A stretch of 64,000 bases of DNA from a virus. Below are positions 1-27,452 of the stretch, piece after piece. The translations under genes and the position numbers were made by a program. Below the pieces are notes generated by a model. The model was not told where the DNA came from. It ran no database searches and saw only the letters and a list, made by a program, of their open reading frames with translations. Position 1 is the stretch's first letter. Every line of letters begins with the position of its first letter. Location of the stretch: the IMG/VR virus record IMGVR_UViG_3300005841_000035, positions 1 through 64,000 of that record, one strand, 5' to 3'.

Positions 1-1461
1 CTGCCACAGTTCGCTGTTGAAAGAGTCACGGCCCATAATCCAGTCCTGGCATTCGGCGTATCCGTTGAACAGGGCTCCGATAATATAGCGCGTGTTCAGA
101 GTTTTGCCACAACAAGGTGGCCCGATGAAGTAAGAAACCGGCCCCGGCTGCGGGTCGCGATTGTAGGCGCACCGATACGCATACGACGCGTAGGAAATGA
201 ACGAGTCCAACGCCTCGCCGCTGGTCAGCCAGCCATCATAAAACTTGGCGATGAAGGGGAAGTTGTCTCCCCACTTCTGGGTTCCTGGCGCCGGCGGCAG
301 AACGTCGATGGTGTGGACGTTCAGGAAGCGTTTACCTTGATACGGCATGAGTCCCTTGGGATAGAAGGCAAAGCTTCCGGCGGAAGCGATTTGCCCGTGG
401 TTGCGGATGTGAATGATTGCTTCGTCAAGGGGCGAGTAGTTCGCGCCCTTCGGTCGGCGGTCCGAGATGCTGCGCTCCACGCGCAGGTGACGGGAGAGGG
501 AGTCGGTGGTGTCGAACATCCACTCGCCCTTGAGATTTTTGTAGATGAACTGATGGTTGTCGAAGTAAATGCCGTCCACCGCGGCGCCCATTTGCTTCGT
601 CTGGAATTCCTTAACGAACGGGATACCGAAAAAGTCCGCCCAGGACATGAACGCGTGATGGTCCGCGTGCTGAGCGAAGGAGCGAATGCCCTTGGTGTTG
701 GCGATGGCGGACCTTGGGCTCGTGGACTCCGGTTCCCAGAACGTCGGCCCCATCGAGTCAACGACGAAGTCGCCGTCCCATTCCGCGAACCGCGGATATT
801 TTTCCTTGAGCAGGGGGGCGACAATTTCCAGCGGGATTTCGATTAGCTCCGGACCTTGAAACGAAAACTTCTTCGAGACCGCCATCTCCCAGCCGAGGAC
901 CAAGTCCGCCGGCACCGGCACCTCGTGAATTTTTTCCCAGCGGCAGCCGTTGGTGTAATACCGGGTCGCGGACCCCACGGCGCCCTCGTCGATGTTCGGC
1001 ACCTGCCGATACGGCAGCAGCTCGTGCAGCCGTTCGAGCAAATACTTCGCGTAGTCTGCCCGGTCCAAAAAATTGATGGGTCGCCCAAGTATCCACACCA
1101 GCCGGAAGTGACCGCTGAACGTGGTTTCGATGTAGTTCGGCTTGCGGTCGCCCATGCGCTCCAGCGCGCCGTCCAGCTCCGCGCGCGACAGCTTGCAGTC
1201 CACATCGATGGCGATGACCTGGGCATCGTGCGGCGGATTTTCCTTGCCGATGCGCAGGTTGGGATTCAGACCGCAGATGCCGGTATACATCTGGTGAACC
1301 GTGGCCGGCGTGTTCGCCCACTTGTCGCGCAGCTTTTTGTCCGCGAAACAGTCCGGCGGGACCTTGGCGAGATTTTCCGCGGGGAAGTCCCAGGGTAGGC
1401 ACTCGTTGATTTCGTGAGAGCTGAGGTTCCGCAGCGCGTAGCACTTTACTTCTCGTAGCAC
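1..1461 (-). CDS. Primase-helicase (archaeo-eukaryotic primase plus SF3/D5-like helicase), C-terminus beyond the left edge
   Basis: Predicted replicative primase fused to a helicase. The N-terminal part resembles archaeo-eukaryotic primase domains: an acidic metal-binding strand IDVD (D86, D88) and SGHFRLVW with H118. Near residue 447 a Walker A loop GPPCCGKT begins an SF3-type ATPase that leaves the window. 487 codons are visible. The start is GTG at 1461: an in-frame TGA lies six codons upstream and GGAGG sits four bases before it. The start overlaps the end of the polymerase C-half by 16 bases, so the two are probably translationally coupled. The family call is from motifs only; the missing C-terminus should hold Walker B and sensor motifs. 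Confidence 0.8.
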   Translation of the reverse strand, partial: MLREVKCYALRNLSSHEINECLPWDFPAENLAKVPPDCFADKKLRDKWANTPATVHQMYTGICGLNPNLRIGKENPPHDAQVIAIDVDCKLSRAELDGALERMGDRKPNYIETTFSGHFRLVWILGRPINFLDRADYAKYLLERLHELLPYRQVPNIDEGAVGSATRYYTNGCRWEKIHEVPVPADLVLGWEMAVSKKFSFQGPELIEIPLEIVAPLLKEKYPRFAEWDGDFVVDSMGPTFWEPESTSPRSAIANTKGIRSFAQHADHHAFMSWADFFGIPFVKEFQTKQMGAAVDGIYFDNHQFIYKNLKGEWMFDTTDSLSRHLRVERSISDRRPKGANYSPLDEAIIHIRNHGQIASAGSFAFYPKGLMPYQGKRFLNVHTIDVLPPAPGTQKWGDNFPFIAKFYDGWLTSGEALDSFISYASYAYRCAYNRDPQPGPVSYFIGPPCCGKTLNTRYIIGALFNGYAECQDWIMGRDSFNSELWQ

Positions 1462-2369
1462 GGGACCTCCTTGGCTTCAGCGGTAACTGGGCAGCCGTTC
1501 AGCCACGGAGGCGTGACCGACATGATATCCTGCACTTGCTGAGCGGTAATGTGAGACGCACACTCACATACAGCTTCATCGTGAACCGTGAAGAGAACCG
1601 TAATGCCAGGAGTGGAATTGAGAAGTAGAACATGGTAGCCAAAAACGTCACGGGCAGTTGCCTGCACCAGATTTTCCGTCAGCAGTCCGCCGTAAAAAGT
1701 GGACCGCATGCCGCCAACGTCGGCGGTGAAGCAAAGCTTGCGCTTGAAACCGAGCGGGACGTCCACCTCGCTGGGCCGGCGCAGGGGGTCCTCGTCCTCG
1801 GAGCGCGGCACGAGTTTCCATTCGGACTTCACGTTTTTGTAGACCATCGTCCGCCCCGAGGGCAGCTCGAGCGTAAAGTCGCCGCCGACGGCGCTCTTGA
1901 AAGCCTCGTCCAGGCTTTTCCACAAGCCGGTGACGCCTGGGTTACTGTCACGAAACTCTTTGACGATGCGGCGGGAGTTTTGTCCGTAGCCGGACACCAT
2001 TTTCTGAACGCCGTCCACGCCGATGATGGGGTCGCCGTCGCGATTAAAGGCCGGCTCCCATTCAGGGTCGCCCGTGGTGATATCCAGCCCGGCCATCGAC
2101 TTGGCCATCGTGATAAACTTGCGCCAGCCGGCGCCGTAGCCGAGCCCGAGCACACGGACCTTGGCCAGAGCATAGATGCCGGGGTCCTCCTTCTTCAGGT
2201 TGCCCTCAACCCATTTCGGGTTGCCGGGGTTCCATTCCATCGTTGACTTGGCGTGCGCGACGTAAGGCGTATCACCACGGGCCATCGCATCCAGGGCCAC
2301 CTTGTCCTTGACCAGCCACGACAAAACGCGCGGCTCGATTTGGCTCAGGTCCGAAACGATTAACTTCAT
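1446..2369 (-). CDS. DNA polymerase family A, C-terminal (palm/fingers) half
   Basis: 307 residues carrying the polymerase active site of a family A DNA polymerase. Motif A is DLSQIEPR at residues 7-14. A motif B-like helix (KVRVLGLGYG) lies near residue 70. Motif C VHDE is near residue 280 and provides the second catalytic aspartate. The protein begins immediately before motif A, so it lacks exonuclease and thumb, which are encoded separately upstream. Its ATG overlaps the stop of the small membrane ORF (ATGA). It should associate with the N-half to form a working enzyme; that is inference. The same split could also come from an assembly error, but two clean ATGA junctions argue against this. 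Confidence 0.9.
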   Translation of the reverse strand: MKLIVSDLSQIEPRVLSWLVKDKVALDAMARGDTPYVAHAKSTMEWNPGNPKWVEGNLKKEDPGIYALAKVRVLGLGYGAGWRKFITMAKSMAGLDITTGDPEWEPAFNRDGDPIIGVDGVQKMVSGYGQNSRRIVKEFRDSNPGVTGLWKSLDEAFKSAVGGDFTLELPSGRTMVYKNVKSEWKLVPRSEDEDPLRRPSEVDVPLGFKRKLCFTADVGGMRSTFYGGLLTENLVQATARDVFGYHVLLLNSTPGITVLFTVHDEAVCECASHITAQQVQDIMSVTPPWLNGCPVTAEAKEVPCYEK

Positions 2370-2536
2370 AAATTTTCAGTGAAAGCGTTGCCGATTCCCC
2401 AGCATATGACCCCTACGATTAGCAACAGAAACCACTTGGAAACCTCATACACCAAGTAGCAGTATCCCACGACGCTGCCGAGTATCACCGCACCGATTAA
2501 AAGTCGGAGCAAAAATTCCAGGATTGCGAGTTTCAT
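2366..2536 (-). CDS. 56-residue membrane protein inserted between the two polymerase halves
   Basis: A small ORF of 56 codons fills the gap between the polymerase halves exactly. Its ATG overlaps the stop of the N-half (ATGA) and its stop overlaps the ATG of the C-half (ATGA). The three ORFs use three different frames. The product has two hydrophobic stretches (about residues 8-31 and 35-48) with a short charged break, so it is probably a two-span inner-membrane protein. No family is recognised. Both junctions have the overlap style of the other genes in this operon, which supports it as real. Confidence 0.7.
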   Translation of the reverse strand: MKLAILEFLLRLLIGAVILGSVVGYCYLVYEVSKWFLLLIVGVICWGIGNAFTENL

Positions 2537-3606
2537 AATGCGTCAGGTCGGGGGATGATGAGCCGGCGCACGTCGAGCGCGTGAGCGGCCAGGGTTTTGT
2601 CCTCGGTCAGCTCGCCGGCGGCGGTTGAGTAGATGGGGACCTTTCGGAAGTTTTGGAAGTTGAGGCCGGCGTCGCCGGACCAGCGACCAGTGTGCGCGCC
2701 AAAATATTTCAGCGCGAAAGGCAGCGTGCCGTCATCCTTGAGGCGCGTCTTGATGGTCTTGAGCGTGCCGTGGAATTTGTTGAGCTGCCGATACGACAGC
2801 ACGCCCTGTATCCAGGGGAACTGAGGCGCGTATTTCGCCTCCCAGGCGTCGAACGCGTCCACGCCGTCCTTGGATTTGACGGGCGGGCACGGGATGCCGG
2901 CCTTGCGGCACGCCTCAGCCATCGCTTTGGGGCTCGTCGGCTTGGCGCCATCGGCCACCCAGGGGAGCGAGTGCAGGGCCACTATCATCATCGTGTCCGT
3001 GATGCGCAGATATTCGGTCAGTAGTTCGGTGTCGATTTGCACGCCGCGCATGCCCTGCTCAATGGTCAGGTTCGACAGTTGTCGTTCGTGCTCGGGCCAG
3101 AGGTGCCCGAACTTGTCCCAAAGTTGCCAGCAGTGAAAAGCATCGCTGCGCGCGTAAGCCAGCATGCGTTCCCACTCGGCGGGGTCCGCACGCAGTTGGT
3201 CCGACGTCTTGCCGTTCGCGTCGTCGCGGGTTGACTTGTCGAGCGTGATGTTCAGCAGGAACTGGCAGGCCTCATCGAGCGCCCTGCGGTTACACAGGTA
3301 GCTGCTGAGGTTCGCCGTGCAGTGCCACGCGGCCACCTTTTTAAGTGGTGCCCAGCCGCGGCGGACCATCTCGTTGTAGACGGTGCGGTCAAAATACGCG
3401 TTGTGGGATAGCAAGGTCTGGTCCTCGATGGCGTCCCAGTTGAAGTTTTTCGGGGAGCCGGCCCAGCTTGCCTTGCCGTCGCAGACGGACAGCAGGTAGG
3501 GGTCGAACCGGTCATCCCGGCAATAACGCTCCGCACCAAGTTCCCGGATGCCGTAATCCAGCTTGGTGGCGTAGAACGTTTCGAAGTCGAAGCCGATGTT
3601 TTTCAT
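2533..3606 (-). CDS. DNA polymerase family A, N-terminal half (3'-5' exonuclease and thumb)
   Basis: 357 residues. The N-terminus is a DEDDy exonuclease: Exo I is FDFETF (D7, E9), Exo II is in HNAYFDRTVYNE near residue 70, Exo III is in YARSDAFHCW. The C-terminal part carries the thumb and the HTGRWSG element that precedes motif A in family A polymerases. It then ends at LIIPRPDAL where intact enzymes run straight into motif A. No 5' nuclease domain is present, as in T7-like enzymes. A class A promoter (3611-3645) lies just upstream, so the polymerase, membrane ORF and primase are likely one transcript. Confidence 0.9.
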   Translation of the reverse strand: MKNIGFDFETFYATKLDYGIRELGAERYCRDDRFDPYLLSVCDGKASWAGSPKNFNWDAIEDQTLLSHNAYFDRTVYNEMVRRGWAPLKKVAAWHCTANLSSYLCNRRALDEACQFLLNITLDKSTRDDANGKTSDQLRADPAEWERMLAYARSDAFHCWQLWDKFGHLWPEHERQLSNLTIEQGMRGVQIDTELLTEYLRITDTMMIVALHSLPWVADGAKPTSPKAMAEACRKAGIPCPPVKSKDGVDAFDAWEAKYAPQFPWIQGVLSYRQLNKFHGTLKTIKTRLKDDGTLPFALKYFGAHTGRWSGDAGLNFQNFRKVPIYSTAAGELTEDKTLAAHALDVRRLIIPRPDAL

Positions 3607-4242: not shown

Positions 4243-4550
4243 AGAGTTACTCCGATTGATGGGGTGTGTTGAACTTTGTTGGCCATGATTTTTCGGACCG
4301 CGGCCTCGAGCCGGTCGCGGCACTTCTCCAGCGCGTAGCCGGTGATGCAGCGCAACGCCTCGGGGCAGGGCGGCAAGGGATGCAGCGGCTCGGGCACCTT
4401 CGTTTCGATTTGCCGGATTACGCTATCCACGAGCGCGTTCACCTCTTCGATTGTTTCCTTGGAGACGCGGGTGAACTTGCCGGCGCGATTCGCCTTGGAG
4501 CACTTCAGCAGATACTCCCGGCAGTGGCTTTCGACGATGAGGTCACTCAT
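4239..4550 (-). CDS. Hypothetical protein, 103 aa
   Basis: Helical, with a conserved-looking N-terminal half (RVSKETIEEVNALVDSVI) and a Cys-containing second helix pair. The pattern of two amphipathic helices after a basic N-terminus loosely recalls small phage DNA-binding proteins, but nothing firm can be said. It starts inside the end of the 45-residue membrane ORF (8-base overlap). Confidence 0.6.
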   Translation of the reverse strand: MSDLIVESHCREYLLKCSKANRAGKFTRVSKETIEEVNALVDSVIRQIETKVPEPLHPLPPCPEALRCITGYALEKCRDRLEAAVRKIMANKVQHTPSIGVTL

Positions 4551-4680
4551 GGGCGCCTAAGTAAAACAGACCCCCCAGGGCGACGAACAACAGGGCCAAG
4601 CCGCCGTGCCCGAGGGTCCACGCGATTAGCGCGAACCCCCAGGACACGCCGGCGCCGATACGATGAAGCGCGGAGAGCAT
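4543..4680 (-). CDS. Small membrane protein, 45 aa
   Basis: An ORF of 45 codons whose ATG overlaps the upstream TAA by one base (TAATG) and whose stop overlaps the next start. Two hydrophobic segments (about residues 8-21 and 27-42) separated by a Gly/His turn suggest a two-span membrane protein. It is one of several tiny membrane ORFs threaded into this operon. Function unknown; a holin-like role is possible but unsupported. Confidence 0.5.
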   Translation of the reverse strand: MLSALHRIGAGVSWGFALIAWTLGHGGLALLFVALGGLFYLGAHE

Positions 4681-9665: not shown

Positions 9666-10609
9666 TAGCTTTTCTCGGTGAGTTGTTTTAACACGGTGGC
9701 GACGTTGCCGCTCTTGTTGCGGTCGTCGATGAGCTTGCCGCATGCTTTGGCATCGAGCTTGATTGCCATGCAGGCCATGATGTGCGCCTCATGTGGCAGG
9801 CCGGATTCCTCGTCCAGGTCTTGCCCATCGAGCAGCGCAAAAATGTGACGCAGGGCCGCTTCGTCGTAGATGGTCGCGCGCACCGCGGCGTCACGCCAGT
9901 TCCAGGCTCCATATTTTTTTGCGCCGAGATTCATTACACGCGCCAAGTAAATGAGCGCGACGGTCGGAAGCAGCCGCAACGGTGGCTTCTTGGTGCCGGC
10001 GATGTCTTTGGGGTTGGACGAAGCGACAGCGGAGGGCCGCTTGTCGTTGTCCACCTGCACAAAACTCTTGCCGTCGCCTGCCAGCTCAAAACGCTTCGCG
10101 CAGCGCCAGTCGAATACGGACTTCTCCGCGGTCGCACCCTTGGACTTCTCATAGCCGGGCAGCGCGACGTAGCCGGCGCAGCCCATGATTGCCGTGAGGT
10201 CACGCCGCACGACCTGCTCCGCATTCATACCCTCGGGGTATTTCGTGAAGTCGTGGTCCTTAGCCAGTGACTCGATTCGAAACCCGTCCTCGCGGTCGAG
10301 CTGAGCCGGGTTCACCGGTTCGAAGCCCGCATCCCAGAGCTTTTCGGCCATCGCGTAAAAAGCGGGGAAGTTGTATTGGTCATGGCCTCTCATCGGGCCG
10401 AGGATGTAAATACGCGAGGGGTTCACTTGCGCTGGTAACTCCAGCGAGTCTCTTCCATTCGGCGAACCATTCGCTGTCATGCCACTCTGCCCAGGCGGCA
10501 CGCCGCCAAACGCCGGCGGCGTTGATATGAAGGCACTCGGGGTAGGCATGGGGGTCTCTTTCATGGTCTTGATTAGGTTGTGCAGGTCCTGAAAGTTGTT
10601 GATGTTCAT
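9665..10609 (-). CDS. Fusion of DUF4406-like (deoxyribosyltransferase-like) and dATP/dGTP pyrophosphohydrolase-like domains
   Basis: 314 residues. After a Pro-rich leader of about 65 residues, RIYILGPMRG...FPAFYAMAEKLWDAGFEPVNP marks a DUF4406 domain of the nucleoside 2-deoxyribosyltransferase-like fold (about 66-165). From about residue 190, LLPTVALIYLARVMNLGAKKYGAWNWRD...DLDEESGLPHEAHIMACM matches the DUF5664/MazZ-type dATP/dGTP pyrophosphohydrolase domain. Both point to deoxynucleotide-pool remodelling. ATG at 10609 is used; a GTG at 10615 overlapping the upstream TAG is the alternative. Confidence 0.75.
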   Translation of the reverse strand: MNINNFQDLHNLIKTMKETPMPTPSAFISTPPAFGGVPPGQSGMTANGSPNGRDSLELPAQVNPSRIYILGPMRGHDQYNFPAFYAMAEKLWDAGFEPVNPAQLDREDGFRIESLAKDHDFTKYPEGMNAEQVVRRDLTAIMGCAGYVALPGYEKSKGATAEKSVFDWRCAKRFELAGDGKSFVQVDNDKRPSAVASSNPKDIAGTKKPPLRLLPTVALIYLARVMNLGAKKYGAWNWRDAAVRATIYDEAALRHIFALLDGQDLDEESGLPHEAHIMACMAIKLDAKACGKLIDDRNKSGNVATVLKQLTEKS

Positions 10610-10614
10610 TTCCA

Positions 10615-10800
10615 CTAGCAGGTTGGTCCGGAGATTTCATTGTCCGAATTTGGTTGGGGCACACGGGGGCGTTCGTCGTCGCAACAGGTGACGATGAGGC
10701 GACCGTTCCATTTTTTCAACTCCCGTTGGATAATTTCGTCGTCGCGCTGCTGCGTCTTGAGCAAAATTTCCCGGAGGTCGCGATAAAAAAGTCCGTTCAT
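10615..10800 (-). CDS. Hypothetical protein, 61 aa
   Basis: Helical and charged, starting MNGLFYRDLREILLKTQQRDDEI seven bases after the upstream stop; an in-frame ATG at 10827 is an alternative that would overlap it by 20 bases. It contains a CC pair near residue 39. Function unknown. Confidence 0.5.
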   Translation of the reverse strand: MNGLFYRDLREILLKTQQRDDEIIQRELKKWNGRLIVTCCDDERPRVPQPNSDNEISGPTC

Positions 10801-26227: not shown

Positions 26228-26542
26228 ATGAGCATGGTTGATGATGCCTGCCCCCGATGCGGGGCGCCGGTCTGCGCTTGCCAGTGCAAGCGGGACCCGC
26301 GGGTTTATGAGACCCCCTGGAACGGTGAGCCGATGCGCTTCGAACTGTCGGAGCACGTCAGGGCCTTCACCGAAAAAATGATGGGCCACCTTCGTCGCGA
26401 GTGGGCGTATCGCCGGCTCGCGGGGGACCTGCTGCACCAACTGAAATCGCTGGAGAACTTCGTGGACCCATCTACGCGCAACCTGCTCAAGGACGCGCGT
26501 GAGGTGTGGGAGAAGCAATTCGAAGACATCGCAAAGTTATGA
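26228..26542 (+). CDS. Small zinc-ribbon-like protein, 104 aa
   Basis: The N-terminus CPRCGAPVCACQC contains two CxxC-like pairs, so a zinc ribbon is likely; the rest is helical. Function unknown. The next gene starts by ATGA overlap. Confidence 0.6.
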   Translation: MSMVDDACPRCGAPVCACQCKRDPRVYETPWNGEPMRFELSEHVRAFTEKMMGHLRREWAYRRLAGDLLHQLKSLENFVDPSTRNLLKDAREVWEKQFEDIAKL

Positions 26543-26763
26543 TAGCCATCATCGCAATCGCCGCTTACTTTGTTTCGGTCATCACGTTGCTGTGCTACGT
26601 GAAATACCTGGACAGCCGCGTAACCAAGTTACAGTTCGAACTTTTCGAATACGCCCGGCAAGAATACGTCTCGCACAGGTTCACCAGCGTGTGGTCGCAA
26701 ATTGTCCGCACACAGGACGACGTGAAAAAACTTCAAGCGAAGCGGGGAGGCAAAAAGAAGTGA
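26539..26763 (+). CDS. Membrane protein with cytoplasmic helix, 74 aa
   Basis: One transmembrane segment (about residues 2-21), then a helix with coiled-coil character and a basic tail. Topology resembles a spanin-like or anchor protein, but no partner is seen. ATGA overlap upstream, GTGA overlap with the recombinase downstream. Confidence 0.55.
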   Translation: MIAIIAIAAYFVSVITLLCYVKYLDSRVTKLQFELFEYARQEYVSHRFTSVWSQIVRTQDDVKKLQAKRGGKKK

Positions 26764-27452
26764 ACGTCGTCGCCTACTACCGCGTCAGCACTCGCGAGCA
26801 GGAAGATAAGACCGGGCTCGAGCGTCAGCAGGACACCGTCGAGAAGTTCGCCGCCTCCAAAGGCATGACCATCGTCCGCTCGTTTTCTGAAGTCCAGTCC
26901 GGCGGCGCGGATATCGAGGACCGCACCATGCTGCTTTCCTTGCTCGACGAGGACGGCGTCAGCGGCATCGTGGTCGAGCGCATGGACCGTCTCGCGCGCG
27001 ACCTCATGGCACAGGAAATTTTTCTTCGGAGCGCGACCACTAAATGTATCCAGGTGTTCACCGCCGACTCCGGCCAGGAGATGACCAACGCGGATGACCC
27101 AACGCGCGTGATGTTGCGCCAAGTCATGGGCGCGCTGGCCCAGTGGGAAAAAGCCGTCATCGTAAAAAAACTTCAGGACGGTCGCCGGCGGACCGCTGAA
27201 CGGACGGGCAAGCCATGCGGGGGTCCGCCACGGTTCGGCTTCCATCCAGACATTCGGACGCGTGGGCATCAGCGGGACATCATCCACTGCGTTAAGAAGA
27301 TGGTGGACGAGGGGTATTCCTACGCGCGCATCGCCCGCCACTTGCAGGCGAACGGCATCTCCCCGCCAACCGGCAAAATCTGGCATCGCTCAACGGTTTA
27401 CAAAATTTCCAAAGTCAATCTTGACAATCCGCCGGCAGGGCACACTTCTTAG
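26760..27452 (+). CDS. Serine recombinase (resolvase/invertase type)
   Basis: 230 residues. YYRVST carries the nucleophile S10; EDRTMLLSLLD and VVERMDRLARD match the conserved serine-recombinase core. After a long helix a short C-terminal domain (YSYARIARHLQANGI, helix-turn-helix-like) binds DNA. The size fits resolvases and invertases rather than large serine integrases. The GTG at 26760 overlaps the upstream TGA and has GGGAGG before it. It lies directly before a fibre-domain gene, so DNA inversion or fibre exchange is an attractive role. Confidence 0.85.
   Translation: MNVVAYYRVSTREQEDKTGLERQQDTVEKFAASKGMTIVRSFSEVQSGGADIEDRTMLLSLLDEDGVSGIVVERMDRLARDLMAQEIFLRSATTKCIQVFTADSGQEMTNADDPTRVMLRQVMGALAQWEKAVIVKKLQDGRRRTAERTGKPCGGPPRFGFHPDIRTRGHQRDIIHCVKKMVDEGYSYARIARHLQANGISPPTGKIWHRSTVYKISKVNLDNPPAGHTS
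27421..27452 (+). promoter_or_regulatory. Class B phage promoter within the end of the recombinase gene
   Basis: TTGACA, 15 bases, ACACTTCTTAGG; ATG eight bases after ACTTCT. The recombinase stop TAG lies in the downstream half. Confidence 0.7.

What the first reader, a model, noticed from the sequence alone, without database searches (positions are those of the whole stretch)
1446..3606. Family A DNA polymerase split before motif A by a coding insert for a membrane protein
The exonuclease/thumb half ends exactly where an intact enzyme reaches motif A, and the palm half begins with it. The gap is not an intron: it is a 56-codon ORF with two membrane spans, joined at both ends by ATGA overlaps, and the three ORFs lie in three frames. 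A split replicative polymerase with a membrane peptide made between its halves suggests membrane-tethered replication, or a ratio control through reinitiation.
Basis: partly seen in the sequence, partly recalled or inferred. Interest (0 to 1): 0.85.

Follow-up and report, generated by a model that had tools for sequence, protein, structure and literature searches.

The report
Phage DNA polymerase in two pieces
A phage of uncultured bacteria makes its DNA-copying enzyme as two separate proteins; relatives show that the enzyme was cut in two first and that a small membrane-protein gene later slipped into the gap, an arrangement already reported in one unrelated group of phages.

Summary
Three ORFs on the minus strand, each overlapping the next by ATGA, encode the exonuclease/thumb half of a family A DNA polymerase, a 56-residue protein with two hydrophobic spans, and the palm/fingers half, which starts just before motif A. 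The reading that the insert split the enzyme is wrong. Nine related viral contigs have the same break: four with no insert (bare ATGA), two with a 28-residue extension and TGATG, three with a different 79-residue ORF. About 120 more distant loci are uninterrupted at this point. On a tree the split enzymes form one clade (100/100) inside uninterrupted ones: one fission, then separate additions at the junction. Both halves keep their catalytic residues and evolve under purifying selection (dN/dS 0.06-0.33). No intron or homing endonuclease lies in the gap. Best reading: a two-subunit polymerase made by coupled translation, the membrane ORF a late passenger seen only here. The same arrangement, small ORF included, is published for MEP401-type phages (PMC10580990), and I found it in Alcaligenes phage QDWS535, two spring-water phages and, cut slightly earlier, vibriophage ICP2. 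Membrane tethering is unsupported. New variant of a known kind.

The parts
2533..3606 (-). N-half of the family A DNA polymerase: 3'-5' exonuclease, thumb and the HTGRWS..NFQN part of the palm; ends RRLIIPRPDAL*
   Evidence: exonuclease motifs D7/E9, H68-N69, Y151/D155 (D7, E9, H68, N69, Y151, D155 invariant in nine sequences)
2533..2536 (-). ATGA stop/start overlap, N-half to small ORF
2366..2536 (-). 56-codon inserted ORF, two hydrophobic spans, 46% G+C against 59-62% in the halves; no relatives found
2366..2369 (-). ATGA stop/start overlap, small ORF to C-half
1446..2369 (-). C-half of the polymerase: palm core and fingers; motif A D7, motif B K70, motif C H263-D264-E265
   Evidence: model pLDDT 92
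1..1461 (-). Next gene of the operon, runs off the window's edge; GTG start with an AAGGAGG ribosome-binding site inside the C-half; unidentified, looks like a primase/helicase by eye
   Evidence: no Pfam or PHROG match

Best explanation
The phage makes its replicative family A polymerase as two polypeptides. In the ancestor of this clade, a frame change in the loop before motif A broke one gene into two that overlap by ATGA. The ribosome finishing the N-half (exonuclease, thumb, part of the palm) restarts at once on the next gene, so both halves are made side by side and, it is inferred, assemble into one enzyme; the C-half carries the polymerase's metal-binding carboxylates. Because this boundary became an ordinary gene boundary inside an operon, it accepts new small genes: in this phage a 56-codon membrane-protein gene settled there, with ATGA at both ends so that coupling to the C-half is kept. 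Shown: the split, its single origin on the tree, later insertion, purifying selection on both halves. Inferred: coupled translation, assembly, activity, and that the membrane peptide has no part in the enzyme.
For: Same split in nine other contigs with three other junction forms: bare ATGA (L001, L003, L004, L005), TGATG plus a 28-aa tail (L006, L007), a different 79-aa ORF (L008-L010). Tree: the seven distinct split sequences are one clade, 100/100, nested in uninterrupted enzymes; window and L001 are sisters, so absence of the insert is the older state. Every other locus is open through motif A. dN/dS 0.06-0.33 for N and 0.11-0.23 for C. Catalytic residues invariant. AlphaFold of the uninterrupted relative L012 (pLDDT 87.7) puts the cut in loop 380-383 between a short strand and the strand 384-391 with Asp390, and its fold matches Klenow and phage G20c polymerase I. 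The window's C-half folds alone with confidence (pLDDT 92). No ribosome-binding site precedes the small ORF or the C-half, but one precedes the next gene. Overlapping gene pairs are translationally coupled and enriched for subunits of complexes (PMC6728339, PMC10666635). Cultured phages carry the same kind of split.
Against: No protein or activity data; no complex of the halves could be predicted here. The insert is seen in one assembly only. Synonymous sites are near saturation for most pairs, so dN/dS is rough. A split enzyme could in principle have lost one activity. The insert might still act with the polymerase.
Confidence: 0.8

Rival explanations
1. Membrane-tethered or regulated replication: the 56-aa membrane protein binds the split polymerase and anchors it at the membrane, or sets the ratio of the halves.
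For: Two hydrophobic spans, ATGA coupling on both sides. The same operon carries another tiny membrane ORF at 4543-4680 that is conserved in L001 and L008-L010.
Against: Closest relatives with the same split lack it; L008-L010 have an unrelated, non-hydrophobic ORF in its place; no relatives of the peptide were found.
Confidence: 0.06
2. One continuous polymerase is still made, by ribosomal frameshifting or RNA splicing across the junction.
For: Bare-ATGA relatives differ by one frame step only; PMC10580990 raised an intron as possible for MEP401.
Against: In the window and in L008-L010 a complete ORF of 56 or 79 codons, bounded by stops, lies between the halves; in L006 the junction is TGATG after a 28-aa tail; no Rfam intron match. 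One frameshift cannot join the halves in the window.
Confidence: 0.05
3. A mobile element (homing endonuclease or intron) split the gene and was lost, leaving the junction.
For: L001 has HNH endonuclease genes directly before the N-half and after the C-half; endonucleases split phage genes elsewhere (PMC2988022).
Against: No endonuclease or remnant lies between the halves in any of the ten split contigs; the simplest junctions are bare ATGA.
Confidence: 0.15
4. Sequencing or assembly error, or a decayed polymerase gene.
For: The insert is seen in one assembly only.
Against: Same split in nine other contigs, clean overlaps, purifying selection, intact catalytic residues.
Confidence: 0.02

Closest known systems
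Split family A polymerase of Methylophilales phages MEP401/MEP402 (Zobellviridae; PMC10580990)
   Same: N-half with exonuclease, then a small ORF of unknown function, then a C-half that starts at the motif A strand (MILNADAKALEW...); no endonuclease in the gap
   Different: A far-off branch of the family, a different small ORF (77 aa, not a membrane protein by eye), junctions without ATGA overlap; the authors raised an intron as possible
Alcaligenes phage vB_Af_QDWS535, Manatee Spring phages ct2os315 and ctOsX528, vibriophage ICP2
   Same: Family A polymerase in two ORFs cut before motif A; gaps of -1 nt (TAATG), 3.6 kb with eight genes, one 68-aa ORF, and 9 nt
   Different: Related to MEP401, not to this clade; ICP2 is cut some 15-20 residues earlier and its C-half is annotated 'hypothetical protein'
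T4-like gene 43A/43B (family B) of Aeromonas phages 44RR and 25, and nrdA split by mobE in Aeh1 (PMC2988022)
   Same: Replication enzyme encoded in two ORFs that must assemble; the split NrdA of Aeh1 is reported functional
   Different: Family B polymerase or reductase; endonuclease or untranslated spacer in the gap, not a small membrane ORF
Uninterrupted family A polymerases of related viral contigs (L011, L012, L017-L020, L137) and Verrucomicrobiota/Kiritimatiellota proviruses (L140-L152)
   Same: Same enzyme and motifs, nearest uninterrupted relatives
   Different: One continuous ORF

Membership tests
DNA polymerase family A | Motifs A (D), B (K) and C (HDE) of the polymerase domain | tested here: met
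   D7, K70, H263-D264-E265 in the C-half, invariant in alignment A1; the usual motif B arginine is tyrosine (Y66) in the whole group, also in uninterrupted relatives
DNA polymerase family A | 3'-5' exonuclease motifs I-III | tested here: met
   D7/E9, H68-N69 with D73, Y151/D155 in the N-half; PF01612 is below its cut-off (18.8 of 23.6 bits), PHROG 17 E 1.8e-24
DNA polymerase family A | Pol I fold | tested here: met
   Model of uninterrupted relative L012 matches Klenow (1kfs, E 5e-17) and phage G20c Pol I
MEP401-type split polymerase | Two ORFs cut directly before motif A | tested here: met
MEP401-type split polymerase | Small ORF of unknown function between the halves | tested here: met
   Present in the window, but absent in its nearest relatives
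MEP401-type split polymerase | Common descent of the split | tested here: not met
   Separate clades; this split is nested in uninterrupted enzymes
Gene split by homing endonuclease or group I intron | Endonuclease ORF or intron RNA in the gap | tested here: not met
   No Pfam/PHROG endonuclease in the gap, no Rfam match
Translationally coupled gene pair (termination-reinitiation) | -4 or -1 nt overlap of stop and start | tested here: met
   All split junctions of the clade overlap by ATGA or TGATG
Translationally coupled gene pair (termination-reinitiation) | Downstream translation depends on upstream translation | not testable with these tools
   Needs a reporter assay

The most novel reading that the evidence does not exclude
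The small membrane protein made between the halves binds the two-subunit polymerase and anchors the replisome to the host membrane, so that insertion at this boundary created a new regulated form of the enzyme.
Probability: 0.05. Interest if true: 0.8.

Novelty: new variant of a known kind. Interest (0 to 1): 0.42.

Why it matters
It shows that a replicative polymerase can be cut at the strand that carries its catalytic aspartate, persist as two parts under purifying selection over considerable divergence, and that this happened at least twice in phages at nearly the same spot. The clade catches the order of events: fission first, gene insertion afterwards, with stop/start coupling kept each time. 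That offers a natural series of junctions for testing how a split polymerase assembles, and for engineering, and speaks against the idea, also raised for MEP401, that the small ORF or an intron is what split the gene.

Tried and rejected
Close DNA matches in the phage collection: none. Relatives of the 56-aa ORF in IMG/VR, phage records, all fetched loci and the rest of the own record: none; its PHROG hit (31084, E 0.005, 38-column model) looks like a match of a hydrophobic segment and was discarded. Pfam alone finds the halves only weakly (below cut-offs); PHROG 17 is decisive. PDB sequence search gave nothing. Introns: no Rfam match. I considered PHROG 10285, 2573 and 12241 as further half-polymerase families from their lengths and matched stretches but did not obtain members. 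The 7-bp TTATGAA at both ends of the insert could be a trace of its insertion, but it is mostly the stop/start overlap itself and was not used as evidence. Literature on split family A polymerases yielded only the MEP401 paper; only open-licence papers were searchable.

Full report
What is there. The window is part of a 71,486-base virus record. On the minus strand, three ORFs follow each other: 3606-2533 (357 aa), 2536-2366 (56 aa) and 2369-1446 (307 aa), each overlapping the next by ATGA. The first and third match PHROG 17 (DNA polymerase) at adjoining model positions, up to 1005 and from 1007.

The split is shared, the insert is not. Scans of IMG/VR found nine contigs with close relatives. 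All are cut at the same place: the N-half ends within a few residues of (R/K)LI(I/V)(P/A)R and the C-half begins MK(M/L)IVSDL. The junctions differ: L001 (85% and 79% identical to the two halves), L003 and L004/L005 have a bare ATGA; L006/L007 have a 28-aa tail on the N-half and a TGATG junction; L008-L010 have an ORF of 79 aa, unrelated to the window's and not hydrophobic, with ATGA at both ends. All loci from wider scans (about 120 further contigs, including proviruses of Verrucomicrobiota and Kiritimatiellota) are open through motif A.

Order of events. A maximum-likelihood tree of joined halves and uninterrupted enzymes puts the seven distinct split sequences in one clade with 100/100 support, nested inside uninterrupted enzymes; the window and L001 are sisters. 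One fission, then independent additions in the window, in L008-L010 and in L006/L007, is the simplest history. So the membrane ORF did not split the polymerase; it entered a boundary that already existed. The window and L001 match up to GACGC and again from ATGAAG, the empty site being the bare ATGA of L001.

Both halves look live. Nei-Gojobori dN/dS is 0.06-0.33 for the N-half and 0.11-0.23 for the C-half across pairs (synonymous sites are near saturation for most pairs, so the values are rough). Catalytic residues are invariant. The AlphaFold model of the uninterrupted relative L012 (mean pLDDT 87.7) places the cut in a four-residue loop (380-383) leading into the strand (384-391) that bears the catalytic aspartate 390; its best PDB matches are Pol I structures, including Klenow and phage G20c. 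The window's C-half is predicted to fold by itself with high confidence (pLDDT 92). A complex of the halves could not be modelled here.

The insert. It has 46% G+C against 59-62% in the halves, two hydrophobic spans (highest 19-residue mean 2.31), and no relative in any collection searched. Random inserts of the same first-order composition are open with as many spans in 0.11% of trials, so it is probably a real gene. Overlaps of 4, 1 and 8 bases recur along this operon, so the coupling is ordinary gene packing here. No ribosome-binding site precedes the small ORF or the C-half, whereas AAGGAGG precedes the next gene; the C-half thus probably depends on restart after the upstream stop. Published work shows that such overlaps couple translation, that a spacing of 20 nt nearly abolishes it, and that overlapping pairs are enriched for subunits of complexes (PMC6728339, PMC10666635). 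This fits a two-subunit polymerase, but it is not a test of it.

Precedents. PMC10580990 reports that MEP401 and MEP402 (Zobellviridae) encode their polymerase in ORF13 and ORF15 with a small unknown ORF14 between. I checked the sequence: the cut is directly before motif A, as here. Related records show the same: QDWS535 (TAATG junction), ct2os315 (eight genes, 3.6 kb, between the halves), ctOsX528 (a 68-aa ORF between), and ICP2, whose C-half is annotated as a hypothetical protein and begins some 15-20 residues earlier. Those tested form their own clade far from the window's, so the split arose at least twice. ICP2, QDWS535 and MEP401 are isolated phages, which argues that such enzymes work, though no biochemistry was found.

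Verdict. A real, conserved, split family A polymerase, most likely a two-subunit enzyme, with a late small gene at the boundary. New variant of a known kind; the membrane-tethering idea has no support beyond the hydrophobic spans. Interest 0.42.

Noticed in passing
L001:4590-4934 and L001:6924-7385: HNH endonuclease genes sit directly before the polymerase N-half and directly after the C-half (the latter with an AP2 domain), each joined to it by a short overlap.
   Followed up: partly
window 4543-4680 (-): A 45-aa membrane ORF in the same operon, with relatives at the same place in L001 and L008-L010 (E down to 5e-4); a better candidate for a conserved membrane function than the insert.
   Followed up: partly
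L049, L055, L061, L065, L080 upstream of the polymerase ORF: In a different branch the polymerase ORF begins inside the exonuclease domain, with the first exonuclease part in a separate ORF upstream in some: apparently another fission or insertion site.
   Followed up: partly
L160:3162-4046 (Vibrio phage ICP2, ICP22013AHaiti_51): The ICP2 'hypothetical protein' after the annotated polymerase is the palm half of a split family A polymerase (CDFSQLE, TVHDS).
   Followed up: yes
L157:742-6211 (MW202796): Polymerase halves 3.6 kb apart with eight genes between, including a cytosine methyltransferase.
   Followed up: partly
window 9668-10615 (-): One ORF joins a DUF4406 domain (nucleoside deoxyribosyltransferase-like) to a dATP/dGTP diphosphohydrolase N-terminal domain (PF18909, E 2.5e-28).
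   Followed up: no
window 26499-27449 (+): Serine recombinase with resolvase and recombinase domains, so the phage may be temperate.
   Followed up: no
window C-half residue 66 (motif B; about 2172-2174): The motif B arginine typical of family A is tyrosine in this whole polymerase group, split or not.
   Followed up: no
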